DNA from: Mesaphorura yosii
Lineage: Eukaryota > Arthropoda > Collembola > Poduromorpha > Tullbergiidae
Direction: 5' to 3'
DNA length: 64,000 bases
Assembly: GCA_009869945.1 (NCBI GenBank)
Contig: WIXG01000065.1
Coordinates: 1-64,000 of the forward strand
The translations under genes and the position numbers were made by a program. The notes under the pieces were generated by a model. It ran no database searches and was not told where the DNA came from. It worked only from the letters and a program-made list of their open reading frames with translations. Positions 1 to 40,215 of the stretch are shown here, in pieces; within the stretch, counting starts at the first letter, position 1; each line of letters starts with the position of its first letter.

Positions 1-113
1 GAATAAATGACAAGTCATACTTCATCTCTTCGTCGTAGTACTTCAGACACTGCCATTTAGCACAGTTCTTCAAGCGTATGAGCATGACGAGAATCCCATC
101 AGCAATCGCAGTC
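1..113. repeat. Direct repeat copy 1 (P2X terminal exon)
   Basis: Identical over 113 nt to 498-610 in the same orientation. The left limit is the window edge, so the true repeat may be longer. The right limit is sharp: after ...aatcgcagtc the copies diverge (ttgactt here, gcctttc at 611). Confidence 0.95.
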
Positions 114-438: not shown

Positions 439-2256
439 TCAGTATTGATACATGTCCATGGAGCCATTTCGACTGCCAATCTTGTCCTTATCGTTTTGAA
501 TAAATGACAAGTCATACTTCATCTCTTCGTCGTAGTACTTCAGACACTGCCATTTAGCACAGTTCTTCAAGCGTATGAGCATGACGAGAATCCCATCAGC
601 AATCGCAGTCGCCTTTCAATAAAAGTAGATACATTTCCATTATCAACTCTTTACTTCCAATTCGGACTTCCAAGTTTCGACGTGGTAGAGTTTACCATTC
701 CAATAATTCCAAGCCCGGATCCCACGACCATCGAGAATGTGAGAAAGTCAAATCGCCTTCCGTTCCCAAGAACTTCGATGTTAAAACGTAACCCGTAGTT
801 TTGTCGCATTGTGCGCCGGTCATCGTCGTGTTGAGTCACAGACCTTTGAAAAATACAAAAAAGGCTTTGAGAATAGCAATTGAAAAATGAGAATTCCGGG
901 TCCAGTCACAAATTCTAACTGAAAAGTCGTTCCCAGTCCCAGGACACTAGTCAATGCATCATCAGCACGCAGGAAGGAGTATTTTGGAAGGCAATCCTGA
1001 ATTGTGAACCCCCAATCAAAGCTGCAGTTCCAGGATATTCGGATGGTGAAGACTCCGCCCTGAAAACGGCCCCTAATCGTAAAATCGAGGCCAATGTTCT
1101 TGATTCTGGAACGCTTTTGAATTGAATTTTTGCTTACGCTGATTCCAACTTCTGTAAAGTCAGCTCCGGCCATGTTGACAATATCACCGATTCTGAATCG
1201 TGGACAATAACGATCAATTTTATCGGACGAATTGTAAATGCACGAACTTAAATATTTCCTGTATATGGCATTTGTATGGTTGTGGTAGTTCTTTCGACGG
1301 TATTCGGGACCACAAGCTGGGAATTCGACGGAGTTCTCGATAACCGCCAAAATACTGCTCACTCCTTCCAAGATTAGACGGGAACCTCCACTACAATTGG
1401 AAAAACAAGCTATGTAAATGCGCGCACGCGGCGTAGCCTGCCGTCTTGCCTTACAATGGAAGGACAACTGGCCCAACTGGACACCAGCCTTCTACTTCAC
1501 ACGTTCTCATTCCTGGCCCATTGCGGAACTGAATTGTGGCTTCTTCCTCAGGGACACACCTTCCGGTTGTGATTCCATTACTCAAAATTAGGCCTGGTCC
1601 TTTGCAATCTTTGTCCGTGACGCAGGTTGAATTCACAGATTGCATGAACTATAAAACAGCATAGGTCGGAATTTGGGCAACCCCAAAACCCGTCGAGAAA
1701 AGTTCAATGCAGTTACCGGGTTAGTCCCATTTTGCCTTTTTCCACCACCGCGCTGAATGTAATTCATTGTACTTCCTCTTCCTCTGCCTGAGATGATTGG
1801 TCCCGCGGACGGACATCGTCCCCGTGTTTGATTGGGGAACATGACAAAGTTGGTGAGCACAAAAACACCTCCATTCTCCGACCCACTTGAAGGAGATACT
1901 CTGAGATCGGTGTGATCCCAAACTCCGCGCCGATACGCTTGCGGGTTCGGGACATTGATTTCTTCATCCGTGAAATCAACATTCGTAGCTCCTTCGAGTC
2001 TGCTCAATACCATCGACTGAACCGGACACACAAGCTGGTAACCTCTTTCCCAAATCACTGCATAGCTGAGACAAGTAGACGAGACCAAGCCTAACTCAAA
2101 ATTTAACGGAAATTACTTAATTTTACAATTTTAGAATGTTAATTACCCAAACACGTAAATGGTGGAACCAATGAGCCAACATACGAAGGTCCATTTTAGC
2201 AAGTAACTTGGAACCTTGACAATCTTCTGAGTCTCGTATTCACTGTAAAATGCCAT
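439..2256 (-). CDS. P2X purinoceptor-like ligand-gated cation channel
   Basis: P2X subunits form trimeric ATP-gated cation channels in the plasma membrane. Exons (- strand order): 2256-2147, 2065-1717, 1648-1455, 1390-920, 843-696, 612-439. All phases agree and give 481 aa; P2X proteins are usually about 380-470 aa. Visible family marks are the N-terminal Y-x-T-x-K motif (YETQK, residues 7-11), TM1 leading into WERGYQ, the VWDHTD and TNFV..PNQT segments, the Cys-rich head ([18 protein letters not shown]), [14 protein letters not shown], and TM2 [16 protein letters not shown]. Oddities: the usual TKxKG is SRLEG (residues 58-62), the NFR motif reads TFQ, and the Lys before YG is Gln389, so the canonical ATP contacts are largely missing. 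The exon 2 donor (1716) is the least certain junction. No minus-strand AATAAA follows the stop within the window. Confidence 0.85.
498..610. repeat. Direct repeat copy 2 (inside P2X terminal exon)
   Basis: This copy lies within P2X exon 6 (439-612). It covers all but 2 nt of the exon's 5' end and stops before the last 20 codons of the tail. See copy 1 at 1-113. Confidence 0.95.
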
Positions 2257-2329
2257 TGCTTAAATCAGTTGACGACAAACAAATCAAAAGGTTTTGTTAT
2301 AACAGTTCACACGGACGGTTCACGTTTAC

Positions 2330-2523
2330 AGGATTCGTTTATGTATTGAGTCGTTCAAGACGCTCAATACTAAAATTGGCCCAATTGTAACACCGTCGTA
2401 TGCGAATGGTATCGTTACAAGTTCGTTTTCCGGTGTGTATCCAAGTTCCTTGTGGTAAATGCTTCCAAAATTCTCATACCCATATTTTGCAGCTGGTTTC
2501 ATACATTTGTAGTCAACTACCAT
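2330..2523 (-). CDS. Candidate upstream coding exon of the P2X gene
   Basis: An ATG at 2523 opens a 64-codon frame ending at a possible donor (CT|gtaaac, 2329). Spliced to an acceptor inside the annotated first exon (ttttacag, exon start 2242) the phase matches and the join reads [10 protein letters not shown], which resembles the FEYDTxxIV N-terminus of vertebrate P2X. The intron would be 87 nt, typical here. The exon product resembles no family I know and would lengthen the N-terminus well beyond the P2X norm, so the ATG at 2256 remains the default start. Confidence 0.35.
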
Positions 2524-3051: not shown

Positions 3052-5663
3052 ATGGATCTCACATTTGAAGCACAAACGCTTGTTCGGCTGATTCTGCTGC
3101 TTCTGTTCACTCTCCAAGTGTCAGACGCAAATGTGGTCTACACTTGCTTCGTTGAAGACGTCAAAACAGCTGCGGGCACCGCGCCGACGCGGGTGACATT
3201 TCCACCCTCGCTCAGCTTCGGTATGAAGAGCGTTGCCCTTACGTAAGTTGACATTCAAGTGTCAAGCGCAGTCAAATCCGCACTTATTTTTACGTCTGTC
3301 ATCCATTTTCTTGATGTAGCCTGGAAGGAAACAGTCCAGGTTGTGCAAATGGCGACTTTTTGGTGTCGAGGGAGCTCCCTAGCACATCCACGGGAAAAAC
3401 GGTGACGCGGACAAGCGCAAATGAAATGGGTTCAAGCGAAGACGCCGTGCCCAGGCTGGCATACTTTACACAAGACGGACACGTCCGTATGGGGAACGAA
3501 TACTTTGCTGCACAGGAATTTTGCATTCAAAGGTAAGAAACCATGCCCAATTTTCAGGAATTCAGACGACTCATTTATAGCCAGTAAAGCATGTCTTCTT
3601 ATCACAGATTAGCCAGATACATGATCGAACTCCGAGTGTGTCAATCACAGTGCTCGTCAAAAGCCTCCTCATCACCAAAAGCAGGGTCAAGGAACCCAGT
3701 TTCCTGCATCCCGAAATGCTGTGATCTTGGCCAAGCAATAAGTACGGAGTCAACATCGTCTGTAAGTCCACAGTGCATGAATGTTGGCGATGGCAGTGCC
3801 AGTGACTTTCAACCATTTTGGGAAAATGGTATTCTGGAGGGCAGTTCCTCTTTGGCCTCTTCTGTCACGCACATTTCACTGCAAAATTTTACATGCACGG
3901 ACTCGACTGCAAGAGTATTTTTGTTCAGGAACTGGACAAGTACTGCCAATGGAATTCAAACCATCGAGTACGTACGCCATCAACTCACGCAACTGCGGCC
4001 TTCGAAAACATTTAACTGCTATGTTCAATGCCTATGATGCAGGTTGAAAATGTCATCAAATGGCAACGGATTGGTACTCGACAAACCCACGACGTCCACA
4101 GCGAAGTTGGTCACGAAAGTCGCGCTTCCCTTCGGAGACTATTGCGTGGACAATTTGCAAGATCCTGGCGCAGATCAAACACTGGCAGGAATTTCGCTGG
4201 AGTCGACACCGTCTTTGGAAAGTGTCTACCCTCAAGATCAAGTGTTAATCGTTTGCGAGTCGGTGCTATTGAAAGCCATCGACGAAGCTCACGCTCGCCA
4301 AGATGAAGATCATAATTTACTTGCCCTAATTCTCTACTCCGTCCTCATGTTCCTGTCCTGTTCCCTGCTTACGGTCACAATCATTGTCCACCTGCTCTTG
4401 TGGGACAAGCTGAAATTCCACTTGTGGGTCGTGCTCTCGTACGTGACATCATTGTTACTGCTTTATATCTTCTTGGGCGCCGCAAACATGATTCATTTCA
4501 TCCGGGCGTTGTCATCGGGGGCGGGCGAACAGATTGACATTGAAACTAGCCACAATGTTGGCTGTGTGCTCATTGGTAAGTTTTTGGGAATAAAAGTGGC
4601 AATGACAATTATACGAGGGCTCAAGTGCTATTGTATTACAATGCATGCTTGTTATGCCAGGAGCGGCCACGCACTTGATTTTATTGTCAACTTTTTCTTG
4701 GTTGACAGCCATTAATGAGAATCTGTGGACAACGTTCAGGTTATTGATATTTTGCATGAGAATATCACACACTCACGTGATTAATTCTAATTTTAAATCC
4801 TGCGAATGCGAATTTTAGGACTCTAAACATTCCCAACAGTACTAGCCTTCTCGAAGAGCAACGTGCAGGCCGATTTGTGGTATTTTCACTCTTCGCCTGG
4901 GGAATTCCGGGACTTGTCGTAGGATGTGGTTTAGTTTTGGACCTTGTGTACAAGTAAGCAGAGCGCGTGTACCGTTACTAATGCTATAATCGTCCTGTTT
5001 TTATTACTAGAAATAACCTACAAAAGTCGGCTTTGATTTTACCAAGTTATGGAGCCGACGGTCAGTGCATGCTGTCATCAACTGCAGAGGGTTGGTACCT
5101 CTTTTATCCACTCGGCGTCCTTCTGGCATTCAATGTGATCTTTTTTGGCCTCACAATTTGTCGGCTGATGCTCTTTCAAAGGGTCATGAAGAACACAATC
5201 GGCGAACGAAGCGCTACAAAATGGAAACTGTATGGCAAATGATAATTTATGGCCACGCCAGAAGGCATCGTTGTGTACTTGAGTCTCTTAATTTTGTGCA
5301 GGATAATCATTTATCTTAAACTTCTCCTGCTTGCATTGCTCATCTGGATATTTGAACTCACTGCTTGGATGCTGAAGCTGGACTCATTTCGATACTATTG
5401 GGTCATTGTGGAAGTCCTTAATTTACTGCAGAGCATGTTGATATTTTTCATGTTCACGTGTCGAGTGAGCGTTTGGAAACAACTCGAGCAAAAGTATCCC
5501 AGTTTGACAAGTAAGTTAAGCTCAGCATTTCATCACACGTTCGTGTAAGTCTTCTGCTTTAAATTAGCCTTCTTATGTTCGTCCAGGATTCAAGGCACTC
5601 AGCGTGAAATGGGACAGATCGAAAACGACATTGAATTACGGAACCAATACATTCTCGCGGTAG
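3052..5663 (+). CDS. Methuselah-like class B GPCR (MthA)
   Basis: Seven-TM receptor with an extracellular methuselah ectodomain. Nine exons: 3052-3242, 3320-3532, 3608-3967, 4043-4575, 4661-4739, 4819-4953, 5011-5229, 5302-5510, 5587-5663; phases close exactly to 671 aa. Exon 1 encodes a signal peptide (ILLLLFTLQVSDA) and the first ectodomain Cys (VVYTC). Ectodomain hallmarks follow: NEYFAAQEFCIQR, then RVCQSQC, CIPKCC, and the C-terminal GDYCVD. TM1 starts near residue 345 (LLALILYSVLMFLSC); the family's HxW turn after TM1 is present (FHLWVV). TM7 is followed by QKYPSL and a short basic tail. First gene of a four-gene head-to-tail array. AATAAA at 5743. Endogenous ligand unknown; Drosophila Mth itself is linked to lifespan and stress resistance. 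Confidence 0.88.
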
Positions 5664-5742
5664 CGGTAATACGACATAATGGTAATACTTGGAATAGAAT
5701 TACTTGACAAGTCCTTGCGAAATTACATGTAACTTATTTTGC

Positions 5743-5748
5743 AATAAA
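5743..5748 (+). terminator. Poly(A) signal of MthA
   Basis: AATAAA 80 nt after the MthA stop codon. Confidence 0.7.
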
Positions 5749-5991
5749 ATTCCCTCTGTTTTCTAATCCATAAATCTACGAATTGGTGTAGGACACTTTA
5801 TAACGCGAAGAATATTAACACTTCCTTCCTCGACCGAAATGAAATATGCCACAATCGGCTCAAACGTCATTTTCGCCTGTCTCTATCAAGCGTACGCTAA
5901 ATACGGCTTCAATTACACGGTGAAAGGTTGAACGATCTTGGGATGTTCCATTACTGTTCTAAAATGACTTAATTGTTGATCGCACGGAATA

Positions 5992-8900
5992 ATGAAGCAG
6001 TTTCGAATGTATCAATTCTTTGTGGTAGCTTGTGTGGCCTGGAAATATTGTCACGCTCAAGATCCTCAAGCAGTAATTCACACGTGCAATAATTACACAA
6101 ACTTTGTGCATATCTTCGATGTTGAATTCCCACCTGGACTGATGTACAACAATGTGAGGTCCAAGTTCATGTAAGTTGCTTGCTCAATGTCTTGCTGAAA
6201 GTGAGTTCACAGAGCTTGAGATGTACAAATACAAGTCTTGATTATCTTGATCACATCTAGATTGCAGAGACAAGACCTGGATCCCGGGTGCACAAACAGT
6301 CTTTCTGAAATTTCAACAGCTGCGCGTGTCTCGAGCTCCAATCTCAATACACCTTTCAAATTTGATTCGAATGGGGTCCTCAAGTTTGGAGTCAACAACT
6401 TCCGAGTTGACGAATACTGCGTTCAGAGATATGATGGCGAGTCGGTGTCTGTGCACATCTGCAATGCCTGTCCCGTGTCAAGCACCGGCTCGAAATTGTG
6501 TGTGCCGAAGTGCTGCGCTGAGTTCTCGCAAGTTTACGACAAAAATAGCAGCAGTTGCGTCAAGTCAGAAAATGTTGGCTCTTCGTTGCCGACGTCCAGC
6601 GTCGATTTTCACGAGCCACCAGTGCTCAACTGCTTCGACCTCTACAAAAACGATTCTTCTGAAGAAATGGTTGACGCATGTGTGAAGAAAAGTGTACAAA
6701 AACCGGGCGCAGGTATTCACTTTTACGCAGGGGCTGTTTTCACGTGTGCCAGTCCAGCGTTGCTCTCGACGTCAGCAGAAGAACGGTACCACTCATTAAT
6801 TTCGTTCTAATAACAATGGAATGTTGAACGAAAGAATTTGCACTCAATTTCAGATTTGCACTACTTGCGAACGGTTCTGTCGCCTTGTACCTCCACGACC
6901 ACGAAAGGTCTTTGGTGCTGTCGTCTGATTTCTGTTTTGATCACGAACTTCACGATGGCAAGCTGAGCACTATGATTTTGGCTTGTTTGCCTGATTTGGC
7001 CACAGGCACTCCAGACAAGGACGAGATAATTGGCATTTTCCCGGAGAAAGTTGCTCAAATCGAGGAAGGTGGCGTGGTTGAGTACAAAATCAAGAAATGT
7101 AGCAACTTGCATGGTATAACAGATGTGCCAGTCCCAGACGTAATTGAAATTCCAGCATCGACAATGCTGCACGGAAATCGCACTTGGTTCAGGTAAGGGT
7201 GCAAGACGAAGGATAGTTATGTCGAAAACTGGCTATACTGATTTACTGTGGTCATTTTGTTTTCGCATCGCAGCCTGAACGAGACAGTTGACCTTTCGTG
7301 TCCTACTGAGACCTACCGAATTAACTTCACCGGCAATGTAGTCAATTACGAGCATGATTTCCCCAACACATATTTTACGAGCGAGGGAGTGGTTTTGGTA
7401 AAGAACAATTACTACGCGCCCGATGAGTACTGCCTAGAAGAGTAATCCCTTTTCATTTTGATTGTGAATTTGCTCGACGAGCTTGAAGTTGGCGGGCCTT
7501 GATTGCTTCATTGTTTCGCAGGTACTCAGAGAGAAACCAAGTCATTATTATCAAGGCTTGCCGTGTTTCTTGCGTTGGCGCTGGGCCTCACGGCTCACAC
7601 TCAAATTCAAGCACGAGAGTCTGCATTCAAAAATGTTGTCCATGGAACAAGCTTATGATGAACGGAGGCGAAGATGACGGATTCGAATGCATTCCAGCGA
7701 AGTCCGGCGATGTATGGCATCCGACATTTTTGGGAGACGACGAACTCTCTAGCACGAGCACGGGTAACGCCACAGCCCCTGCGCAAGCGAATCGTAGGAG
7801 GCAGATTCATTACAAGACTGGATTAAATTGTTCTCAACAGCACTACTCGAATACGGGCGACCCGTGAGATTAATGACAACCTTACTTTATGTTTCAGCGC
7901 CCTCGCCACGCTTTCTAAATGCTGCCATTTGTGTATAGTAGACCTTTCGACGTGCTTGAGAATGGGTCTGTGTCCATACTAGCAGAAGACGGCACTGTGA
8001 TCACCGTCGCCCCGGAAGAGTTTTGCTTGGATGGGGAATACATTGACGGGGTCCTGAAAGCTCAAGTATTTGGCTCGTGTACTCCTGAGTGGGTGGACGA
8101 TTCGTATCAAGTGAGTGTGCCGTGCTTACTGGAACTTGAAATCTGAGTACTAAGGACATTAACATTAACATCCTTAATTTGTATTAACGGTTTACAGAGA
8201 GCGCTATCTACCGCGTACGCCCCACTGATGCTTATCTCGGCCTTGTTCCTCCTACTGACTGTGATTATCTACACATTGATTTGGGATAAACACAACATTC
8301 ATGGGTGGACCGTGTACGCGCATTCGATTTCCATGTTCTTCATGCTCGTGTTCTTGGCGATAGGGCACATTATGACCCTGCAAAATTACGAGCAGGAGTT
8401 GCGCGGGAATAAGGCGTGTGTGGCAGTTGGTAAGTTGTGCCGTCAAGTCGGCATCCTTGTGAATAAACCTAGCCATTGGCCGCTCTCAAGATTTACATGC
8501 ATCTCTGCACTGTTTTAAGGTCTCTTGACGCATTTCTTCTTCCTGTCGACATTTTGCTGGATGACCGTTCTAGACTTTGTAAGTTATCATGTTATCAATG
8601 TCCCTGATGATTCAAAATCAATACTGTACTGTAGTGGGTCATTTTTGCTTAATTTTTTAGGACCTGTGGTGGACTTTCAGGTAAAATAGGTCTTAACTGC
8701 AAACAGCAAATGCTCTCGTAATTTTATTTTGCGAAATCATTCTGACGTTGAGTGACTGTGTGGCAGAAATTTGACGCCTGCATCAAACAAATCAAAGGGG
8801 TGGACAAGATTCGGGTATTACACTCTGTTTTCCCTTGGGGTTCCACTCTTTATCGTGGTGATTGGAGTGACACTGGATAATGTGTAAGTTTGAGAATTTC

Positions 8901-9790
8901 CAGAAGCCACGTGTGAGGTTGTTTGTGGAAATTGTCTGAATTTTATAAAACGAAACGGCATTTGACGAAGAACTCTATTCCAGGTATTCCATGTCGTCCA
9001 AACCCAGTGGGCTCATACTACCAAACTACGGAGTTTTCAACTGCTTCTTGGAACCTAAGGCTCAAGGTCCGTACTTGTACTACTTGATCGCATTCGAGCT
9101 CGTCGTCGATCTATCAGTGTTTGGAAATACAATCCTCATCATGTACAACTACAAGAAGAATACGATGGCCGTGCGAAGAGGACAGGCTGGCAATCAGTCG
9201 CAGTAAGGACACGATACACGAAGATACGATCTATCAACTGTTAAGCAAACCCGTCGCTGATAAGCCCATTTTATCTTGCAGAGTACAACTCTTTGCGAAA
9301 CTCTTCTTTGTAATGGGTGTGTCGTGGATATTTGAGTTCATTTCGTGGCTGACCAATGACTCAAAGAACAATTCGCCGATTTGGATTGTGTTTGACATTG
9401 TAAACTTGGCCCAAGGAGTTGCCACCTTCTTCATTTTTGTCTGCAAGCCCCAAGTATTGGCGAATCTGTGGCATAAATATCCAAGAGCTCGGCGTAAGAA
9501 TTCACCAAGTCATTAAAAGTTACTGAGATTGCATTATTGTGGTTACAGATTATCGTCTTTCTTGCATTAGCTTTCTTGGACATCTTCAAAAGATTGCCAT
9601 GCTGCAAGCTCATTTCATTGGACATCGACAGTCGAGAGATCAGTGGAACCAAAGTTACGTCAACTCACAACAGCTCGTCACTGAGGCATTACAGTGGAAA
9701 TCCGACTGCGGTCGCGCCCTCGAGCAATTCAACAACGTCAACGCTGTGAAGTTAAACTATAATGCGTGCAATGCGAGTGCGAGTGCCTGA
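5992..9790 (+). CDS. Methuselah-like GPCR with two tandem ectodomains (MthB)
   Basis: Thirteen exons: 5992-6170, 6261-6785, 6854-7192, 7274-7441, 7522-7863, 7939-8110, 8198-8429, 8520-8578, 8661-8680, 8767-8883, 8984-9202, 9282-9493, 9549-9790; all phases agree, 941 aa. A signal peptide (FFVVACVAWKYCHAQ) precedes ectodomain 1: NFRVDEYCVQR, VHICNAC, CVPKCC, then LLANGSVALYL and SSDFCFD. A second complete ectodomain follows: NYYAPDEYCLEE, KACRVSC, CIQKCC, then VLENGSVSIL and APEEFCLD. No TM segment lies between them. One 7TM domain begins near residue 580 (LMLISALFLLLTVIIY, NIHGW). The ectodomain is about 575 aa against about 340 in MthA and MthC. The exon after TM3, 79 nt in all paralogues, is split here into 59+20 nt by an 82-nt intron. 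The exon 6 acceptor (7938) is an inner AG chosen to avoid an in-frame stop. AATAAA at 10003. Confidence 0.85.
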
Positions 9791-10002
9791 TTCCGGTTGT
9801 AATGATCATCAATTTATTCAGGGAGAATTTACTTTTAGATGGTTTTCAGTTTTCACAGAAAGGAATTTAGAGATTAAATACTTTAATCTGGTTGTAGTAG
9901 AACGCGTAAACTTTTTTGCTGGCGCCCGCTCAACCTTGAAGCTCCTCTCCATTCGAAAAATTTGGCCAGAACTCGAGGACGGGATTCAGACATCATTATC
10001 TG

Positions 10003-12085: not shown

Positions 12086-15000
12086 ATGTGGCGACTCAGA
12101 GTGACAAGACGTTCCAACTCGGCAGTTACAGTATTCTATTGCACAGTGCTCCTAATTTCAATCATAATCGATGGTTTGACTGCGACTGCGGCCGTGACTG
12201 CGAGCGAGACAACAAATCACCTGTACAAATGTCAGCAATTCAGTTCCGCATTCAATGACAGCAGCAATGGACATTTATCACAGTATTTCATCAGTCCCGA
12301 GCACAGCGACTTGAAATTTGGGTAAGTAAATCACTGGGCATTGGGAATTGGTTGGGTTGCACCAAAGGGCGCCCAAAGCGCAAAGTACCAGCTTCCTCTC
12401 ATACTTTACGCACATTAAATAGCGAGCGCAGCGAGCGTCCGACTAGTGATCACATCCAGCTTTTGCTTGTGTGAATGGTGGGTTAGGCTGGGTTAAGATA
12501 CGATATTTTGCTTTCAAATCGTTTAGTGAGTAAGCCGAAGGCTTAATCCACGAGGAGGGCATGCGAAACGCGATTTTGTTGTTAAAAGCAACTTCACCAA
12601 TACAACGATTATCATAACTTAGGTTAGGTTAGGTTCGCGCTTCTAGACCTCTTCAAGACTCGACACCCGCACTAAACACATTTCAGTCCCCAAAAAAGTT
12701 TCTAGACAAAAACACAACATTTTGAGAAAATGCGTCCCCTCTGGTGCAATCCAACCTTGGAAAAGCCTTGTGTTTATATCATCGGCATTCACTGAAAGTT
12801 CAATTTTGACCTGTTTAAAGGTTGCACGAGTTTAACTCTGCCATTACCTGCAACAATGAAAAGATATTGCTGGACTTTCCTGCAGAAGCCAGTCAAGAAA
12901 CCAACAGGGGCGCCGAGTCCAACATTATTATTTCGATTTTATTTGCAGCAAATCTCACCCGGCACGGCCAGCTAAGAATCGACAACGAGTATTATGAACC
13001 AACTGAGTACTGCGTGCAAAAGTAAGGAAGCCGGTAACTTTATTTGTTTTTGGTCAAAATAGGAAAAGTAGTCGTAGATTCAAAGTTGATTCCTGCGGTC
13101 GATGTTCAGTATTGCTAGGTCGAAAATTACTGTGGAGGTCTGCCCACCAAGGTGTGGGACCAATGACAAAGATGGCGACGGTATTGACGTCCTCTGCATT
13201 CCAAAATGCTGCAGTGTCGGTAAATCTCTCGCCATCACAAACGATGGGCCTGGATGTGAGCCGTCCGGTCCGATTTCGTGGTCTCCGACACTGTATTCGG
13301 ACCCACATACAAAGCTCCCTCCTTCACGAGCCCCGCGAAAGCATTTTAGGCAACAAGGCCCAAATTGCGCAGTAGATGTAGATCACAGCATGTGGCCGTT
13401 GAGAGATGTGACGCTGGGCGGTGAATTGATTCAGGAGAAACAAATGTACGTGAGCAGCCAAGCTTTGTGTCTTGTTCTGTGACTGTAACTGGTGAAGAAT
13501 TAAGTTATTTCTCGTCTTTGCGCAGATGGAGGCTGTTAGGTGATGGTAGTATCGCCCATTTAAGCTCGAGCCGAGTTTGGAAGATGTTGAAGGTTGATTA
13601 CTGCATTGATGGCATGATTCCTGACTTTGAGTCAAATTCAAGCCTTAGCGGAGATGAACAGGATCAAGCGCTATTAATTTGTTTCGAAGAAAATACAGAA
13701 ATGTAAGAGATTATTTAGATGCTTTTGATCCATTACAGCAAGGCCAAGGCTGCAGATGGGCAACCTTTCAATGTAGAACTGTTTCACTCCAGGACATACT
13801 CGTATGTCTACGTCCCGGCGATGCTCATCGCGTCATTTTTCCTGCTGCTCACCGCGATTGTCTACGGATTATTGTGGGAGCAGCAAACAGTACATGGCTG
13901 GACCATTTTTACCTTTGTAGTGTCCATGCTTTTTATGTACGTATTTCTCGCAACGGCTCACATCCTCGGAAAGACCAGAACGCATGAGGAAAGCGGTTCA
14001 GTACTTTGCACTTCAATCGGTACGGCCTGTTTTGGGTTCTAATCTTGGGAGTTCATTTAAATGATTGGCGGCTGAATTAAATTCCATTTTGTCCAGGAAT
14101 TGCTGCTCATTTCTTCTTCCTGTCTTCATTTTGCTGGATGACGCTTATAAATGTTGACTTGTTCTGGACATTTCGGTGAGCAATCGAACTTTTTGCGTCC
14201 CTCGTTCATTTGCTCAGGCACTAAAAGGCTATTTGGAATCATTTCAGGATCCTGAGACCAAACGGAACCGGAAAGTCGAAAGGAATCAGAAGATTCGCTC
14301 TGTTTCTTTTTTTCGCTCTTTTTGTACCCGTGGCCGTGATCGGAACTGGACTCGTGTTGAGCGCTGAGTATCCGTAAGTAGCCCATGGCCCAAAGGGCAC
14401 TTCGTCCCACAATAGCGTCTGACTAATGACCACCAGGGGTTTTGACATTTAGAGACATTGAAAGTGAAGTTATTGTGCCGGACTACGGAGTCTCAACGTG
14501 CTTCATCAGTAGGACAGCACGTGGTCCGTATCTTTACTATGTAATTGGGTCCTTGCTTGGGTGCAACACGACCCTGATCGTGGTGACACTCGTCACAGTG
14601 TATAGGCTCAAGACAAGCACAAGATTTGCGAAGATAAAGTCAATGGAGCGATCAGGTCATTCGTAAGTTGGCTCACACCATATTGCAGGTAAATCGACCA
14701 AGACACAGACTCTCTCTTTGTAGGCTCACGCTCTTTGTGAAGCTTTTCATAATAATGGGAGCGACGTGGATTTTCGAACTAATTTCCTGGCTGGCGACTT
14801 CCGGAGCGCGGTCAAGCAGCAACAATGAAACCGAACAGGTTCCAATCGCATGGATTGTAATCGATCTAATCAACGTGCTTCAGGCAGTAGCCATTTTTGT
14901 GATATTTGTGTGTAAAAAGAAGACGTGGGCTCAAGTTCAAGCGAAATACACCGTATTTAAGAGTAAGTCCGAAGGCCTAGCAGTAGCATTCTCAGTCTAG

Positions 15001-15362
15001 CATTCTGGTTCGAGGCATCATAAATTAATTAACCGTCTATTCCAGCATGCTCGACATGCCTTGCCTTGCCGTGTCAATCTGGCCGTGGTGATATCAATGA
15101 TACTGACACGCGGAGCAAGACGAATGGTATTGGCAATGTGGGCATGAATCAGCTCGCAAGAAACCAAACTCGAGATCGTGGTGCAGTTCGTCAAATTCGT
15201 GATTCGGAGCTAAACAGCAAAAATAACTCGGGCCGATCTTCCCCGCCGACAACAGTGACGACTACGGGCATTAGCAAAATAGCAGCAGAAGCGGAAGACC
15301 AGTGCCAAGAATCGCTTGATGTCGATCACCCCAGTTCCAGTGTCATTAGCTCCAACTTGTAG
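12086..15362 (+). CDS. Methuselah-like class B GPCR (MthC)
   Basis: Ten exons: 12086-12321, 12821-13021, 13110-13445, 13526-13702, 13739-14019, 14097-14175, 14248-14373, 14453-14662, 14724-14962, 15046-15362; phases close to 733 aa. Exon 1 has a hydrophobic leader (VFYCTVLLISIIID) and LYKCQQF. Ectodomain marks: IDNEYYEPTEYCVQK, VEVCPPRC, CIPKCC, LLGDGSIAHL, KVDYCID. TM1 is VPAMLIASFFLLLTAIVYG with the VHGW turn; TM6-TM7 contain WIFELISWL and WIVIDLINVLQ. The tail after TM7 is about 110 residues, Ser/Thr/Asn-rich and polar. Intron 1 (about 500 nt) contains an inverted-repeat element. Intron 4 (13703-13738) is only 36 nt. AATAAA at 15407. Confidence 0.87.
12350..12757. mobile_element. MITE-like element with terminal inverted repeats in MthC intron 1
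   Basis: The left end GGTTGGGTTGCACCAAAGGG (12350-12369) is matched by the reverse complement of the right end (12757 leftward: GGTTGGATTGCACCAGAGGG), differing at two of 20 positions and continuing imperfectly to about 24 nt. The element is about 408 bp with no ORF, so it is non-autonomous. Inside are gcgagcgcagcgagcg and gtaagccgaaggcttaat style short palindromes. The flanks share only TT, so the target-site duplication and superfamily are undetermined. Confidence 0.65.
12619..12635 (+). repeat. Short TTAGG run (arthropod telomere-type motif)
   Basis: TTAGG repeated three times followed by TT, inside the MITE-like element. TTAGG is the ancestral arthropod telomere unit, but three copies can arise by chance. 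Confidence 0.5.
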
Positions 15363-16142: not shown

Positions 16143-18452
16143 ATGAGCCATTTGGTCATACTCAGGTTGTTGTCGCTGGTCCTCCAACTTGCATTGCTTT
16201 CGCACATTTCTGGTGCCACGTCAGCATCAAGCGACTTTGAGTTGGTTTCGGAATGCTGCAACGCAGAAAACACGCGGGTACGGATACAAGATCCAGTGGA
16301 TCCAACCGAGAAGCCCTGCCTGGATGCCGGCAGAAACTCACTTCTGTGCTTACGATATTCGTGCAAGCAGAAATCTGTCTTAGACACTTCTCCAGGAGGC
16401 ACGCGCATGCTTGGAACTGGATCGGATCTGGAACCGATAATGTCATTTGGCAGGTTCGACGTGAAACGTTTAAAACGCCCGAAGAAGTCGAAAATACATT
16501 TCCACGCTACGCTGCGCTAGGCGTTGTTCTGATTTTTAAATCAAATTGCAGGTGTTTTTTACCAGTTGGAAATCCGCCTCCAACCCAACCAAAGTAATGT
16601 GCCAAACTACTGCTGACTTAATTTAAATAAAAATTTTACCGTATCTTGTCTTCTCTTTTCTTCGCCTTACAGATACATTTTGAAGTTGGACATCATTCAC
16701 AATGGCACACTGGTCTACAAAAACAGGAGCGATCACACCATCAGCTTGCCACCAACCGCATACTGCGTGGTCACGGCCATTGAAAACAGTACGGGCGCGT
16801 ATGGGCGTGTTCAAGACCTCGCGACAAACCAGCTTGAGATTTGCATGGACATTTCTCAAATACACAACATCGATGACGATGTAAGCCTTTAAATGTAGCA
16901 AAACCTACTGCTCCGCCCGCCAGACGCCAGATTGTCATTAAGATCAAGTTTTACCTTACCAATTTGCCAATTTTCGTTCCAGGACCCAACGCTGATTATC
17001 ATTTACTTGATATCGTACACATTTGCTGCGATTGTGCTGCTCATCACAATGTGCTGCTTCATAATGTCGTACGAGAAGCAATCAATTCATGGGTGGACGC
17101 AATTTACGCATGTGCTTGCTTTCTTTTTTCTACTTGTGTTCTGGAACTTGGACGACTCTTTCATATTGGCTAAGAATACTGGAACTACCACCTGCAAGGC
17201 GATCGGTGAGTACCAAGAGGCCAGGCAGCAAAATGCCATTGAGAACATCGAAATTATTTATTCAATTCAAGAGTTATGTAGCCAGGTAAAGTTATGCATT
17301 TTCGGTTGTTTACAGCTGTCGGTAGTCATTTCTTCTACATTGCACTCTTTTCATGGCTTCTTGTCGTAAACTACGACATTCGGCAAGCGTTTCTGTAAGC
17401 TCGATTCAAAAGCCAAAATATTCCTTTACTGTGAATCAGCAATGCTTAACGCCTGCAATTTGTCACCAGGAACATTGGACAAAAGGAATTTCGACCTCGA
17501 TTCTCGACGACGACAAGATACTTGTTGTACTCTGTGCTCGGATGGGGAGTTCCCTTGCTCGTGGTGCTCGTGACGATCATGTTCTCTATTGCATTGTAAG
17601 CTCTTAGTTCTTAGTGTGGCCCGTTGTGCCAATCGTTGGTTCACTGATTAATGTGATTACCTTCACCGTCGCCCTCACACCGCAGTGACACCGATGACGA
17701 AGAAGCCGAGACCCTTTACATGCCACTTTACGGTATTAAAGGCTGTTCGCTTGCGTTTCGCTCGTACTGGCTGTTCCTCACATTGCCGAATGGGATACTT
17801 CTGGTCCTAGTTTTTATCCTGTACGTCAAAATGGTGCGAATGCTACGGAGGCAAAGCCGATCTTCAAGAAGTGGTACAACGTGAGTGGCTCCTGAAACTG
17901 CAACCTACAGCCGAATGACCGGGTGTGAAAATTCTAAGTTCTAAGACTAGTTGTCATTGTCTCAATTCAGAACCGTGCTTGGCGTGAAGATTCTGTTTCT
18001 CATGGGTCCCTTTTGGTTTCTGGACTTGATTACATGCATGCACGTGGCTGTCACAAAGGACGAGTTTGTATGGTACATCACACTCTTCGACATGATTGTC
18101 ATCCTCCAAGCGATTCCTCTGTTCGTCATCTACATTTGTCGGCCCGACCTGCTCCAATTTTTCCAAGAGAAGTACCCACGGCTTAAAAGTGAGTCGAAAT
18201 CTCTTGTAACTTGTTGATCACTTTGCTGTAAACTGTTGCATGTTATTGTTCACTCTTTCCTTCGCCGCAGATGTATTTGTTGGCGTTGAGAAATTATTTT
18301 GCGTGCCACAACCAACGAATACTTCGCAATCTCCAAACACAATCGAAATGGGAGAATCGCGCAACGCAAAGCTGCGGATAAACAAGCGGCCATCGCTTCC
18401 ATCCACGTTTGCTTCCCGATCTGTGAGAGAAACTGCAACCGGACACCTGTAA
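16143..18452 (+). CDS. Methuselah-like GPCR with reduced ectodomain (MthD)
   Basis: Nine exons: 16143-16277, 16454-16593, 16673-16880, 16983-17205, 17316-17394, 17470-17595, 17686-17880, 17971-18188, 18271-18452; the frame closes to 501 aa. Exon 1 encodes a signal peptide (LLSLVLQLALLSHISG) and VSECCN. The 7TM part is unmistakable: TLIIIYLISYTFAAIVLL with IHGW after TM1, the conserved 79-nt exon, LPLYG-type loop (MPLYGIKGCS) and EKYPRL after TM7. Only the last part of the ectodomain is recognisable (HNGTLVY...LPPTAYCV). The CxxKCC core seen in MthA-C and E is absent, leaving about 160 residues before TM1. The intron between exons 1 and 2 is tentative: the open frames in 16190-16450 could hide a frameshifted remnant. 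AATAAA at 18567. Confidence 0.75.
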
Positions 18453-29210: not shown

Positions 29211-31605
29211 ATGTTGACGAAATCATTTCCCTTGTTTTTACTGTTTCTGATAAAATGTGCACCGACTGCAACAACGGGTCCCATTTCGGATTCTGCCCTC
29301 TACACTTGTGAAAATGCCGAAATCGCACGAGAATATGGAGAAACATGGCAGGTGCCTGGGTCATTGATGGCAAACGGAGAGCCGACCAATTTCAGGTTAG
29401 GTCTAATATTAGGTAACACACTGTTTAGGGCTGTCAGGTTATTGCTCAGTAACTTTTTACCTGTCTACGCAATGTAGTATCACAGCTTTGTCGGGAGGTT
29501 GGAGATGTGAGGACGGGCACAAGACATTCAGCCTTCCACTGGGCACGAACTCACGCGCAGATGCAAACATAACAGTTTATCGCAATGGATATGTGCAAAC
29601 AGGATCGGATCCGAACCTGGATTACTTCCCACCGAGACAGTATTGCATTCAAAAGTAAGAAACTGTAACATAAAGTCGGCTGTAGATTAAATGGATAGCA
29701 GCAGAGTAATAAATACTGATCCCGACAGATTATCTGCATCATCGGTCCAGCTACAAATCTGCAGCCGAGTTTGCACGAGAGACCGGCCTTGCATTCGAAA
29801 ATGCTGCCCACTGAACAAATTATTCGCACCCGTGCCTCCGCTCTGTAGACCGCACAACGACACTCGGATGTGGGAGCCACGATTCTACACCAATATTTAC
29901 GGCCAGAGCACGCAGGTCAGGATGTCAAGTGACTTTCAGCCGTCATATTACGTCCAGTTGTGGTCAAGTGACGAGTGGAAAGCGTCGTGCCCGAGCGGGA
30001 AAACTCAAGTTAAGTTCAATCGAGTTCACCGACCTCGTGAAAGGTTCCGTGTGGGGACAAACGGAGAATTGATTGTCTGGAACGCGGAGAAGCGGGAGTG
30101 GGAACTGGACAACGGACCGCATTGCATTGACGAGACGATTGACGGATCAGCAGCCGTGTTGGTATTCTGTGAAGCTCCTTACGAGCAGCGCGGAGCGCCA
30201 ACGTTCTACGGAGCTCTTGTGCTCTGCACTTCCTTCTTTGCGCTGGCCACTCTTGTCGTGCACCTTTTGCTGTGGGAGAAGCAAAACATTCACTCTTGGA
30301 CAATCATGTCTTTCGCCGCGACGTTGTTCATTTTTTTCATGATTTTGGGGATATCACAATTTGTGTCTTATTGGGAAGGGGTTCTTAGTACAGCGCCATG
30401 TAAAATCATAGGCAAGTATCGAAGCGGTTACGGGTCTCAAAGTCCAGGCGGATCTAATTTTTTTGCCTTTGCTAATTGATCCTGCCCTTGTTCACTGCTC
30501 ACGCTCAAATTGTTAATAGGAACGTTGGGACACTTCTTCATGCTGGCAACGTTCACATGGCTAATGTTAATCAGCCTGGATTTGTATTTGACATTTCGGT
30601 AAGCACGGACGCACTTAGCGCTTTTCAACCGACACACTGCCCCGTCAGCTGTTTTGTGTAGGGATATTATGCTCGCAAAATCCAGAGGAATCAAACGGTA
30701 TCTGCTGTACTCGTGCTTGGGCTGGGGCATTCCACTTCTGATTGTCACCGTCGCATGGAGTCTGCAATTGGGATATGGGTAAACTAACTAACTACTAGGC
30801 GTTACTGTTCTTCGAAGGATCGATGCAGTGCAGTGACCTGTTGTTGCCTGGTCTACTTAGATATGACAACTACAGCACGGTAAAAGTGCCCCATTACGGC
30901 AGTAGGAATTGCTACATAACGCAATACGCCATGACCCAGTACGTCTATGGCCCTTGCACCGTTCTGTACGTGATGGACATCGTTTTCTTCATGTTGACGC
31001 TCCGAAAGCTGCTGGAGGTCAAGCGAAGCACCAGATTCGCACGGGCAGACACGAAGAAAGATCGCCAATCGTAACTGAAGCAATCTGGGTGTTTGTTACT
31101 CTACTAAAAATTTGCAGACATAACCCCCATACCTTTTTGTTATTACAGGTTCTACCTTTTTGTGAAATTGTTCTTTGTCATTGGCGTTCTCTGGTTCCTT
31201 GAATTTGCTGGCTGGTACTTGGAGCAAGGACACGCTACTTGGTACTGGATGCTGCTGGATTTCAGCAATTGCCTTCAGCCCGTGTCGCTGTTCGTTATTT
31301 TCATCTTGAAAGTTGATGTCCTGAAATCGTTGGCAGAAAAGTATCCGAGCTTGTCACGTAATGAATGAATTCGCATACGAGCATGAGTTTGCATGAGTGC
31401 ATCGTGAGTTACTGCATTCTGTAATAATTGCATTTGCAATTTCTCTGCAGCCGTGACCGCTCCACTGATCTCAATGCTGAAATCCATTGAGGACAGATGC
31501 GGAGGCAGAAAGAAGGGGACGGGAGCTCAATCCGAAATGAGTTCGTCAAAATCTGAAAAGAGCGCATTTTCGACAGAGACTACGAACTGCGACACTGAAT
31601 TTTGA
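29211..31605 (+). CDS. Methuselah-like class B GPCR (MthE)
   Basis: Eight exons: 29211-29395, 29478-29654, 29729-30411, 30520-30598, 30662-30778, 30861-31070, 31149-31357, 31451-31605; the frame closes to 604 aa. Signal peptide FLLFLIKCAPTATT, then ALYTCEN, FPPRQYCIQK, QICSRVC, CIRKCC, FRVGTNGELIV and GPHCID, followed by TM1 (YGALVLCTSFFALATLVVHLLL, NIHSW). The exon after TM3 is 79 nt as in MthA, C and D. The junction at 30411/30412 has a GC donor (ATAG|gcaagt), at the position where paralogues have GT. The tail after TM7 (EKYPSL) is about 55 residues, Lys/Ser-rich and acidic at the end. It lies about 11 kb from the main array, with unrelated genes between. AATAAA at 31748. Confidence 0.87.
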
Positions 31606-32527: not shown

Positions 32528-35110
32528 TTAAACAAAAACGAGGCTAGTCCTCTTCTGGTTAATCTGCCAGACGTTGATGTTCTCGTACTCATCCAGGCAA
32601 CGATCAATTTGTTCATTGGAGTAGCCAGCAGCATGGCACTTGTCGCGAATTTCCTTTATCTGCATGGTGTTCTGGCCTGGGTTCAATGAATTCTTTAAAC
32701 GATTAATGACGTCCTTAATCCGCTCCATCGGGCCGTTGGCTTGGGTCTGGTTTCTTTGTGCTGCGAAAAATTCAGAATTCAACTCGAATAAATTGCAGAA
32801 AATCAAAACTGAGTGAAACTGTGAAACGAATAAAACAACACCATACCCGGTTTAACAGAATCTCGAGATCTCTCTACGAGGCGAATCGCTTCGTTCACGT
32901 CGTCATCAATTACTTGGTCTGCCAGACGGAGTCTCGCCTAAAATGTAAAACAAGGAAGTTTAACAAGAGAGTTTAATTCGAAGAGAAATGGAAACGAGCA
33001 GACTCGTTACTCTTTTGGTACTTTCGGAAACTCACCAGTGCGGTTGAGAAACGCAGAATTGCCAAAAGACTTCTCGGAGACGTAAAAGTTGTCTCACGGG
33101 CGTTCCTGGCTTCATTCCTCAGTTCCACATAAGCTCCGACGATTCTTTCACTGAGAGCTGGTGGAATGGCCGGATTCTTCTTGCGACAAGTCAGAATATA
33201 TCTTCGCATGAACTTCATGTCCAGAGGCTTAATATTTGTAGGAGGTTCAATCGAATGCTGATGGACGTAAGTGATGTGCTTAGCCAGTCTCAAATCTTCT
33301 TGCTGGTCCGCTCGATCCTGAAGTAGCCAAAGCAGATCAAAACGAGACAGCAATGCAGCTGGCAACGCGATGTTATCTTGAATGCTTCGGTTTGGATTAT
33401 ATCGCCCGTAAGCAGGATTGGCAGCAGCCAAAACTGACGTTCTTGCATGAAGCGTTGTCAGAATGCCAGCTTTAGCAATGGAAATAGTTTGTTGTTCCAT
33501 GACTTCATGAAGCGCTGTTCGGTCAGATTCGTTCATCTTGTCGAACTCGTCAATGCAGCAAACTCCTTGATCAGCCAGCATCAGAGCTCCTGCCTCCAGA
33601 GTCATCAAGCCAGTCACAGGGTCCTTCATAATGGAAGCAGTGAGACCAACTCCGCTTGAACCACGCCCGGAAGTCAGCTGACTCCTCGGAGCCAAGCGAT
33701 CCACATAAGACAGCATTTGAGATTTTGCCACTCCAGGATCTCCCATCATACAGATGTTTATTGTTCCACGAATTTTGAGCCCCTCGATGTTTCTCTCAAC
33801 GCCTCCGACAAGCATAAGCAAAAGAGACTTCTTCACGTCGTCGTGACCATAAACTTCTGGTGCAATTGATGCTGCCAGTTTGTCATAAAAATCAGAGCGT
33901 GCAACTTCATCCAATTCTTCTTCCGTTAGCTCTCCACCCACATCGCCATCGTCCCATTTTGATGTCAGCTGAATCTTATGGGCTTCCAGGAAGGTTTCTG
34001 TCAGCAGCCCTTGGCTTAATTGAGCAAAGGCTGTACTTTTTGCAAGTGGAAGAAAAATTCCACTAATGGAAACATGATCCCCGGCAGTAGCAATCCTTGA
34101 GTTCTCTCCTCTGCACTGTATGGTCAAGGCACGCGGGACGTGACCGGCTGGAACATCACCGGACATCTCCTGAACTTTCAATTCTTGAAACTTGACAAAC
34201 TTGGAACCTCTTGTTTGCAACTGAAGTCGGCCGCCGGTCTTGTTCGATTTACAAAAATCAGAACCACAAGAGACGATTGGTGTGAAGGTCGGTCCAGATA
34301 CTGGTTGAAATGTTTCGGCAGAACACATGTCGCAAGAGTAGGTAGCAACGCTAAGCAGCGGGCGAACTTCCGATGCTCTTATCACGGTTCCATGCACAGT
34401 GACGAGTTTTCCTATTTGGTCTGCCCTCAAGCTCCGAATAGTCATTACTGGAACTGAAGTTCTCGGAATCCAGTACGCCTCGAATCGACGAAGGAGATCA
34501 GCCGGAAGCACTTTAGTGATGTCAGTGTTTTCGTCCTGTTGCAGATTTCGGTATGCAGTAAGTCGGTGGTCGATGTACACATCCAACGAATCCTTCAACT
34601 GCGGCTCTCTTGTTTTGAACTCAGGAAGCAACTCGGCTATGGCGTCCGACAAGATTTTGGTGTATCTGCACACAACATGCGATAAAAATTCATTTTAATG
34701 AGGCATTTATTAGGTTAAAAATCAATTTCTTTTGTTTGTTTCACACCTCTTTGTATTTTTTTCAACCTCTTTCAATATGTCTTCAGTATTATCGAATGAT
34801 TCCAGATCATCCAACGCAACAAAAATGGTTGATTGCTCTCTGTTTGCAACCTTGATGAGTTGTTTCGAGTATACAAAATTCTTCGGCCCATTCCCTCCAT
34901 TTGGATCAGGATCAGTGGTGTAAAATCCTGTTAGGAATGTCTTCAGCATTTCTGGCAAGAAAGATTCGATTGTTTCAGAATTAGCGTCTTCTGTCTTCAA
35001 TACATCAGTTTATTTAACGAGTAGTCGGTTCTCAATTACTGATATGTTAATAAGCAAAAGCAAAAGCAAACACACGCAAGCAATTTACCTTTATCGTTGT
35101 CGTACTCCAT
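32528..35110 (-). CDS. MCM7: DNA replication licensing factor MCM7
   Basis: Subunit of the MCM2-7 replicative helicase. Exons (-): 35110-35089, 34990-34747, 34665-33036, 32937-32847, 32760-32528; phases agree, 739 aa (human 719). The N-terminal domain has the zinc-binding cysteines (CDMC and later CGSDFC). The AAA+ core has Walker [10 protein letters not shown], Walker [10 protein letters not shown] and arginine finger SRFDLLW. It is assigned to MCM7 rather than other MCMs by [19 protein letters not shown] spacing ([12 protein letters not shown]), VNEAIRLVE and the C-terminal winged-helix end [18 protein letters not shown]. The first exon encodes only MEYDNDK plus one base. The start is about 720 nt from the RPC1 start on the opposite strand. 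Confidence 0.96.
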
Positions 35111-38800: not shown

Positions 38801-40215
38801 GCTGGAGAAGGAGAAACGAACCCACTTGGAGACGATGAAGAATTCATCGAGAATCGGCTACAACAAAGTTTCTTCAGGCTTTGAGCGAGATCTGGAAAAA
38901 TTCGTCCTGAGCAATTCTTTCCGTTCTGAGCAACTCGTACACTTTCTGGACGAATGCTGGCTGAAATTCCAGAGAGCCACAATGGAGCCTGGCACAGCAG
39001 TGGGTGCGTTGGCTGCTCAAAGTATTGGAGAGCCCGGAACCCAGATGACTTTGAAAACTTTCCATTTTGCCGGAGTGGCTTCAATGAACATCACGCTCGG
39101 TGTGCCGCGTATCAAGGAAATCATCAACGCGTCCAAAACTATTTCTACTCCCATCATATCTGCCAAGTTACTGGAGTCAACTCCTGAGGCTGCTGTTGCA
39201 GTAAAGAATGAGCTGCGCAAGATTACGCTGGACGAAGTGATTGAAAGCATGCAGCAAATACTTCTTCCAGATGAATTCTTTCTACTGATACAACTATCAG
39301 TGAAGAGAATGGCGACAAGAGGCATCAGACCTCACATGGTGAGGACTGGCATCATGAATGCACTGAAGATAAGAAAGGCGGATGCTGTACGAGTTGTCAA
39401 GAATATGATTTGCATTTTCCCTCATGCCCTGAACAAATCACAACCATTCTTCGCGTTGCAGACACTGATGAAGTCTGTTCGAGGGGTCCACGTGAAGGTA
39501 AATCATAAATCCACATCCATTGACTTGATCTCGGAGCATTCTTAGCTTGCGAATCGCTACTAAATTCTGACTCTTTGCTTATGATTTCGTAGGGTGCTCC
39601 TGGAATCAACAGAGCTGTGATATCGTCGGACCAGGACGGCAAATTTGAGGTGCTGGCTGAAGGCGACAATTTTCGAGCTGCATTAACCACTCCTGGCGTT
39701 TGCCCGCGGACTACAACGACGAATAATATTTTCCAAATTCAGAGTGTATTGGGAATTGAAGCAGCAAGGTACAATGGCGAATGGTCTAATGAGTTTGGTC
39801 AATACTTGAAGCATTAATTAACCTTTTGTGAATGTGTTTTAGGACCTGCATCATCAAAGAGATCCAGTACACGATGGCGTCTCATGGCATGAACGTGGAC
39901 AAAAGGCACTTGACTCTAGTGGCCGATTTGATGACCTCACGCGGAGAAGTTTTGGGAATCACTCGCCACGGCCTCGCGAAGATGCGGGAGTCAGTTCTCA
40001 TGCTTGCGTCGTTTGAGAAGACCGCAGACCATTTGTTCGAAGCAGCCTACTTTAACCAAAAGGACACGGTGTCGGGAGTATCGGAGTCAATCATTCTTGG
40101 TCAGCCGACTCTCCTCGGCAGTGGATGCATGCAGACGGTGGAGAAACAAGTGCCAATTGTAAAAAGACCTAAGAATATTCTAGCTTTTGAAGACGCTCAT
40201 AGGTTTATGTCTTAA
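35831..40215 (+). CDS. POLR3A: RNA polymerase III largest subunit RPC1 (POLR3A)
   Basis: Catalytic subunit of RNA polymerase III, which makes tRNA, 5S rRNA and U6. Exons 35831-35874, 36002-37580, 37647-39497, 39593-39768, 39843-40215; phases close to 1340 aa (human 1390). The start MVKEIVRDF parallels human MVKEQFRET. Seen in order: clamp zinc-site cysteines ([21 protein letters not shown]), [36 protein letters not shown], the catalytic metal loop [10 protein letters not shown], the bridge-helix region [20 protein letters not shown], the trigger loop [19 protein letters not shown] followed by [13 protein letters not shown], and the C-terminal [30 protein letters not shown] and the overall pattern identify Pol III rather than Pol I or II. 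AATAAA at 40313. Confidence 0.97.

What the first reader, a model, noticed from the sequence alone, without database searches (positions are those of the whole stretch)
5992..8110. Methuselah-like receptor with two complete tandem ectodomains (MthB)
Two full sets of signature motifs (EYC..., CxxKCC, NGS, and FCxD/FCLD) occur in succession without an intervening TM, stop, start or poly(A) signal, and every junction keeps phase. Known Methuselah proteins have one ectodomain. A doubled domain could bind two ligands, a dimeric ligand, or self-associate.
Basis: partly seen in the sequence, partly recalled or inferred. Interest (0 to 1): 0.7.

Follow-up and report, generated by a model that had tools for sequence, protein, structure and literature searches.

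The report
Methuselah-like receptor with doubled ectodomain
A gene for a cell-surface receptor of the Methuselah family, which normally carries one outer sensing domain, here appears to carry two complete ones in a row, an unusual variant of a known receptor type that still needs RNA proof.

Summary
Gene B (window 5992 to about 9.75 kb, + strand) reads as one 13-exon receptor gene with two complete Methuselah-type ectodomains before a single secretin-type 7TM. A gene finder trained without B joins both into one gene (score 73.7 against 60.6 for the best split). A profile from 11 other receptors of this genome matches B twice over the same full range (64.8 and 80.5 bits); none of the 12 other matching proteins has two full copies. 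Both copies hold all 12 family cysteines and phase-2 introns at family positions. Copy 1's end and copy 2's start share one open exon (6854-7192), with no stop, TM or convincing signal peptide between. Of at least 13 ectodomain receptors found in this genome, only B is doubled. Origin, fusion within a tandem receptor array or old internal duplication, is undecided. Likely action, by inference: ectodomain 2 couples to the 7TM; ectodomain 1 is a second outer binding module. No RNA or ortholog was available and no structure was obtained (structure prediction busy ten times). Ten open-access literature searches listed nothing on a doubled Methuselah ectodomain. New variant of a known kind.

The parts
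5992..6170 (+). Exon 1: signal peptide and N-terminus of ectodomain 1 (Cys1); the gene finder starts at the second ATG, 6007
   Evidence: ends phase 2
6261..6785 (+). Exon 2: ectodomain 1, Cys2 to Cys10, plus two extra cysteines; the intron after Cys3 seen in 11 of 12 single-ectodomain relatives is missing here
   Evidence: phase 2 to 2, 525 nt
6854..7192 (+). Exon 3, the fusion exon: end of ectodomain 1 (NGS, FCFD, Cys11, Cys12), linker of about 30 residues, start of ectodomain 2 (Cys1)
   Evidence: open in frame over 339 nt, phase 2 to 2; linker codons score as coding (0.248 per codon)
7274..7441 (+). Exon 4: ectodomain 2, Cys2 and Cys3 (EYCLE)
   Evidence: phase 2 to 2, 168 nt
7522..7863 (+). 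Exon 5: ectodomain 2, Cys4 to Cys10 (CIQKCC)
   Evidence: phase 2 to 2, 342 nt
7939..8110 (+). Exon 6: end of ectodomain 2 (NGS, FCLD, Cys11, Cys12); acceptor 7939 or 7942
   Evidence: phase 2 to 0
8198..8429 (+). Exon 7: TM1 and TM2
8520..9493 (+). Exons 8-12 (8520-8578, 8661-8680, 8767-8883, 8984-9202, 9282 to 9399 or about 9493): rest of the secretin-type 7TM
   Evidence: PF00002 43.6 bits over residues 586-837
9549..9790 (+). C-terminal tail exon, exact borders not settled (gene finder 9549-9749; another frame runs to 9790)
3052..5663 (+). Neighbour gene A: Methuselah-like receptor, one ectodomain
12086..15362 (+). Neighbour gene C: Methuselah-like receptor, one ectodomain
16143..18452 (+). 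Neighbour gene D: 7tm_2 receptor with short N-terminus, no match to the ectodomain profile at E up to 0.001
29211..31605 (+). Gene E: Methuselah-like receptor, one ectodomain (the gene finder splits it in two; a GC donor near 30411 is possible, by eye)

Best explanation
One gene encodes one membrane receptor: a signal peptide, two complete Methuselah-type ectodomains joined by a linker of about 30 residues, then one secretin-type 7TM and a short tail. Shown at gene-model level: the architecture, the frame, the repeated domain with its introns, and that the doubling is unique among the relatives found in this genome. Inferred: ectodomain 2, which joins TM1 as in single-ectodomain relatives, is the part that drives the 7TM; ectodomain 1 sits further out as a second binding module that captures ligand or a partner and raises avidity or adds a second specificity. 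My rough split for ectodomain 1: second ligand site 50%, self-association 20%, inhibitory or decoy module 15%, passenger without a role 15%. Likely origin (inferred): two tandem receptor genes fused by a deletion that removed the first gene's 7TM and the second gene's signal peptide, or an old duplication of the ectodomain exons.
For: Gene finder self-trained with B left out gives one 13-exon gene, 73.7 against 60.6 for the best of 8 splits, and still one gene when the donor at 7193 is masked. Two profile copies, positions 69-291 and 70-290 of 330. All 12 family cysteines in both copies. Introns at family positions and phases, with the phase-0 intron before TM1 only after copy 2. Copy 2 passes Pfam Methuselah_N when scanned alone (23.8 bits, cut-off 21.5); the 7TM passes PF00002 (43.6 bits, cut-off 20.6). 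Same-strand array A, B, C, D within 3-18.5 kb.
Against: No RNA, no ortholog, no structure. Copy 1 has no Pfam Methuselah_N match, and the 861-residue protein scanned whole shows only 7tm_2 at E up to 0.01. Copy 1 has no phmmer match in the PDB at E up to 10. The family profile's two best PDB hits are Methuselah ectodomains, but only at E 0.15 and 0.17, with ribosomal and designed proteins close behind at 0.23-0.29, so this is no significant match. Copy 1 scores lower than every relative left out in turn (64.8-69.3 against 71.4-149.2 bits). The gene finder is home-made, trained on about 69 kb of its own predictions and seeds, and the relatives' models come from it too. The functional steps are inference.
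Confidence: 0.78

Rival explanations
1. Two genes: a secreted ectodomain-only gene (5992 to about 7196) and a separate single-ectodomain receptor starting downstream.
For: If the intron at 7193 is retained, a stop follows one codon later, which would give a secreted ectodomain form. ATG 6972 opens with a short hydrophobic run, 1.88 over 10 residues against 1.99 at B's own start.
Against: The eight split parses tried score 13-17 units worse. Copy 2's Cys1 lies upstream of 7193 in copy 1's own exon. The run at 6972 is seven residues with no basic residue before it, falls to 1.89 over 8 residues against 3.04 for B's start, and is copy 1's Cys12 strand; ATG 7164 gives 0.18 and lies after Cys1; a start at 7655 would lose Cys1-Cys8.
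Confidence: 0.08
2. Alternative splicing is the point: exons 2 to 5 all start and end in phase 2, so one gene can make the double receptor, an ectodomain-2 receptor (1-4-5-6) and an ectodomain-1 receptor (1-2-6).
For: Both skipped forms keep frame and give a single complete domain (78.6 and 74.4 bits, 12 and 14 cysteines).
Against: This follows automatically from the phase-2 ectodomain introns of the family and is no evidence of use; other skips (of 2, 3, 4, 5 or 4+5) also keep frame but break a domain. No RNA.
Confidence: 0.1
3. Ectodomain 1 is a decaying leftover of a fused neighbour, or the whole gene is a young pseudogene.
For: Copy 1 is the weakest match to the family profile, has no intron after Cys3 and has two extra cysteines.
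Against: Exons 1-7 are open and score as coding best in the predicted frame; all 12 cysteines are kept although the copies share only 22% identity.
Confidence: 0.1
4. Assembly error that removed the first gene's 7TM.
For: The window starts at a contig end and an exact 113-base repeat lies at 1-113 and 498-610, so the region was not trivial to assemble.
Against: A mis-join would have to fall inside an exon, keep the frame and remove a signal peptide; the locus is single copy with no N and no repeat of 30 bases or more was reported at the junction.
Confidence: 0.04

Closest known systems
Methuselah / Methuselah-like receptors of arthropods (Pfam PF06652 Methuselah_N plus PF00002 7tm_2)
   Same: Secretin-type 7TM with a cysteine-rich N-terminal ectodomain; copy 2 passes the PF06652 cut-off when scanned alone. 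The family profile's two best PDB hits are Methuselah ectodomains, though not significant.
   Different: Two ectodomains in tandem. In the papers seen, the family has one ectodomain with 10 cysteines (PMC4768249, parts 1 and 2 of 3; PMC3655951, passages); here 12 per copy, and 14 in copy 1.
The 12 other receptors with this ectodomain found in the same genome (A, C, E and those on contigs C66, C94, C484, C267, C284)
   Same: Same 12-cysteine ectodomain with exceptions told in the text, shared intron positions and phases, same 7TM class.
   Different: All have one ectodomain.
Adhesion and hormone (class B1) receptors
   Same: Related 7TM class; adhesion receptors also stack several extracellular domains (recalled, not tested).
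   Different: No domain other than 7tm_2 was reported in B at E up to 0.01.

Membership tests
Methuselah/Methuselah-like receptors | Secretin-type seven-transmembrane domain | tested here: met
   PF00002 43.6 bits, cut-off 20.6, residues 586-837
Methuselah/Methuselah-like receptors | Methuselah_N ectodomain by Pfam, copy 2 | tested here: met
   23.8 bits against cut-off 21.5 when scanned alone; not listed at E up to 0.01 in the scan of the 861-residue protein
Methuselah/Methuselah-like receptors | Methuselah_N ectodomain by Pfam, copy 1 | tested here: not met
   No match; but only 4 of 12 ectodomains of this genome match PF06652 at E up to 1, so the Pfam model is a poor judge here
The 12-cysteine ectodomain family of this genome | All 12 family cysteines in order, both copies | tested here: met
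   12 of 12 columns in B1 and B2; 8 of those columns hold Cys in all 14 ectodomains, 4 in 13 of 14
The 12-cysteine ectodomain family of this genome | Match to a profile built without B | tested here: met
   69.3 and 85.2 bits alone; 64.8 and 80.5 bits in the whole protein
The 12-cysteine ectodomain family of this genome | Phase-2 introns at three family positions inside the ectodomain | tested here: met
   Copy 2 has all three, copy 1 two of three; in the 12 single-ectodomain relatives they occur in 12, 11 and 7
Methuselah/Methuselah-like receptors | A single ectodomain | tested here: not met
   Two full-range copies in B
Methuselah/Methuselah-like receptors | Methuselah ectodomain fold and its five disulfides | not tested

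The most novel reading that the evidence does not exclude
One Methuselah-like gene whose two interchangeable ectodomain cassettes, both flanked by phase-2 introns, are used singly or together by splicing, so that one 7TM is given two different sensing domains or both at once: a splice-switched two-sensor receptor.
Probability: 0.12. Interest if true: 0.68.

Novelty: new variant of a known kind. Interest (0 to 1): 0.45.

Why it matters
How the Methuselah ectodomain binds ligand and drives its 7TM is, to my knowledge, still open, and many members are orphans. A natural receptor with a membrane-proximal and a distal copy would let the two jobs, binding and coupling, be tested apart by deleting one copy. 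It also points to a simple route by which tandem receptor arrays could make new architectures.

Tried and rejected
Separate genes, pseudogene and assembly error were weighed and set aside. A tree of 13 ectodomains could not place the copies: branches are saturated; one model does not group B1 with B2, another does with support 53/16.9, and A+B1 (p-AU 0.444) and A+B2 (0.332) are not rejected. By identity B1-B2 ranks only 30 of 78 pairs (22.4% over 228 columns), although in BLASTP each is the other's best match (E 1.6e-15). So internal duplication and fusion of tandem genes stay open. A 7TM tree of 12 receptors gave no supported partner for B (nearest C, 41%). A Pfam Methuselah_N search of the whole genome rang nowhere, controls included, and shows nothing. 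A COX1 search found nothing in this genome (it rang in 8 of 14 controls), so the organism stayed unnamed. A weak hit on C154 (E 0.002, three stops) and the 7TM-only contigs (C202, C109, C482, C163, C464, C447, C161, C117 and others) were not followed upstream. A hydropathy measure over 10 residues did not separate ATG 6972 from B's own start; a second look did, in part.

Full report
What is there. The window is the first 64 kb of contig C65 of an unnamed 93 Mb genome in 1127 contigs. Genes A (3052-5663), B (6007-9749 in the gene finder, 5992 by the ATG before), C (12086-15362) and D (16143-18452) lie in a row on the + strand, and E at 29211-31605. A, C and E match the ectodomain profile once each (E in two pieces of one domain); D has a 7tm_2 domain but no match to the profile at E up to 0.001.

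One gene or two. I wrote a small splice-aware gene finder, seeded with A, C and E and self-trained on the window and nine fetched loci (L023-L031), with predictions over gene B left out (last round 51 coding sequences, about 69 kb, seeds counted again). It returns B as a single gene of 13 exons. For exons 1-8, which I had drawn by eye before, it agrees except for the start ATG (6007 for 5992), one acceptor (7942 for 7939) and the end of exon 8 (8578 for 8580); the last two exons stay unsure. Over 5700-9950 the single-gene parse scores 73.7; eight cuts between 7000 and 7300 give 56.7-60.6. With the donor at 7193 masked it still makes one gene through another donor (66.3). The same program keeps A, B, C and D apart, so it does not join tandem genes by habit, though A and C were among its seeds; it splits E in two, wrongly I think.

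The fusion exon. Exon 3 (6854-7192) carries copy 1's NGS, FCFD, Cys11 and Cys12, then about 30 residues, then copy 2's Cys1 and the strand before its first intron. All three parts have positive coding scores, the linker most of all (0.046, 0.248 and 0.062 per codon; the ectodomain exons of A and C score 0.085 and 0.073). There is no TM-like stretch. The one in-frame ATG between the copies, 6972, opens with MILACLP, which is copy 1's Cys12 strand; over 10 residues its hydropathy (1.88) is close to that of B's own start (1.99), over 8 it is not (1.89 against 3.04; A, C and E give 2.96-3.62). If the intron after exon 3 is retained, a stop follows one codon later.

Two complete domains. In an alignment of 14 ectodomains, 12 cysteine columns stand out; both B copies have all 12. 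Single gaps fall in L023a, L028 and, twice, L024, whose model was cut short and whose DNA does hold the two missing cysteines. A profile built from 11 relatives without B gives copy 1 69.3 bits and copy 2 85.2; the best shuffles with cysteines fixed reach 18.2 and 19.5. In the whole B protein the profile matches twice over the same range, 69-291 and 70-290 of 330. Of 68 predicted proteins scanned, 13 match at E up to 0.001: the 11 members (by construction), L024 and B. E shows two pieces, but they are different halves of one domain (profile 1-153 and 195-319) broken by a missed splice site. Left out in turn, the 11 relatives score 71.4-149.2 bits; L029 and L031 show small second pieces (7.5 and 1.0 bits) that are not domains.

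Intron map. Of the 12 single-ectodomain relatives, 12 have a phase-2 intron before Cys2, 11 one after Cys3 (not the second C94 receptor), 7 one before the (D/N)G motif, and 6 a clear phase-0 intron before TM1 (from the coordinates and phases, counted by eye; E's third exon by my own reading). Copy 2 has all four. Copy 1 has the first and third, lacks the second, and is joined to copy 2 at about the place of the fourth. Exons 2, 3, 4 and 5 are therefore 525, 339, 168 and 342 nt, all divisible by three, phase 2 at both ends.

Is it unique. Four more protein queries and one search placed this ectodomain on C65, C66, C94, C484, C267 and C284, 13 genes as I count them; apart from a weak hit with stops on C154, the other places matched in the 7TM part, and I did not look upstream of them. 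The tool calls such counts lower bounds. The DNA of 5900-8500 occurs once. Ten open-access searches listed no paper on a doubled Methuselah ectodomain; of the papers listed I read parts 1-2 of 3 of PMC4768249, and I saw passages of PMC3655951, which I took from its reference list; the rest I saw only as listings. PMC3655951 reports mis-annotated or doubtful extra N-terminal stretches in this family, which is why the gene finder and intron map matter. Predicted proteins in public databases could not be searched, so doubled members may already sit there unremarked.

Origin and action. Copies 1 and 2 are as far apart as other pairs of receptors here (rank 30 of 78) and the tree is saturated. A deletion between two tandem receptor genes, from the end of the first ectodomain into the second gene's first exon, would make exactly this exon; an old internal duplication would look the same now. 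For action I commit to ectodomain 2 as the coupling domain, because its join to TM1 is the family's, and to ectodomain 1 as an added outer binding module. That is inference from position, not shown. The splice-switch reading is attractive and in frame, but any duplication in a gene with phase-2 ectodomain introns would allow it.

Changes made on checking: the loss from a start at 7655 is Cys1-Cys8, not Cys1-Cys6; the hydropathy of ATG 6972 is now told, and the two-gene rival raised from 0.07 to 0.08 for it; the near-equal unrelated PDB hits are told.

Noticed in passing
window 439-2523, - strand: A P2X receptor gene (PF00864, 223.8 bits). I recall P2X being absent from most insects, which may help name the animal.
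   Followed up: partly
window 1-113 and 498-610: Exact 113-base direct repeat at the contig start; the second copy overlaps the predicted 3' end of the P2X gene: recent duplication or assembly edge effect.
   Followed up: no
window 16143-18452, + strand: Gene D: same 7TM class in the same array, but a short N-terminus without the CxxKCC core; perhaps a receptor that lost most of its ectodomain.
   Followed up: partly
window 6261-6785: Ectodomain 1 has two extra cysteines between Cys9 and Cys10 (14 in all), perhaps one more disulfide of its own.
   Followed up: no
window 44053-46674 (-), 49938-51776 (+), 32528-35110 (-), 35831-40215 (+): Predicted proteins that look, by eye only, like an ionotropic-type receptor, a UDP-glycosyltransferase, an MCM helicase and an RNA polymerase large subunit.
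   Followed up: no
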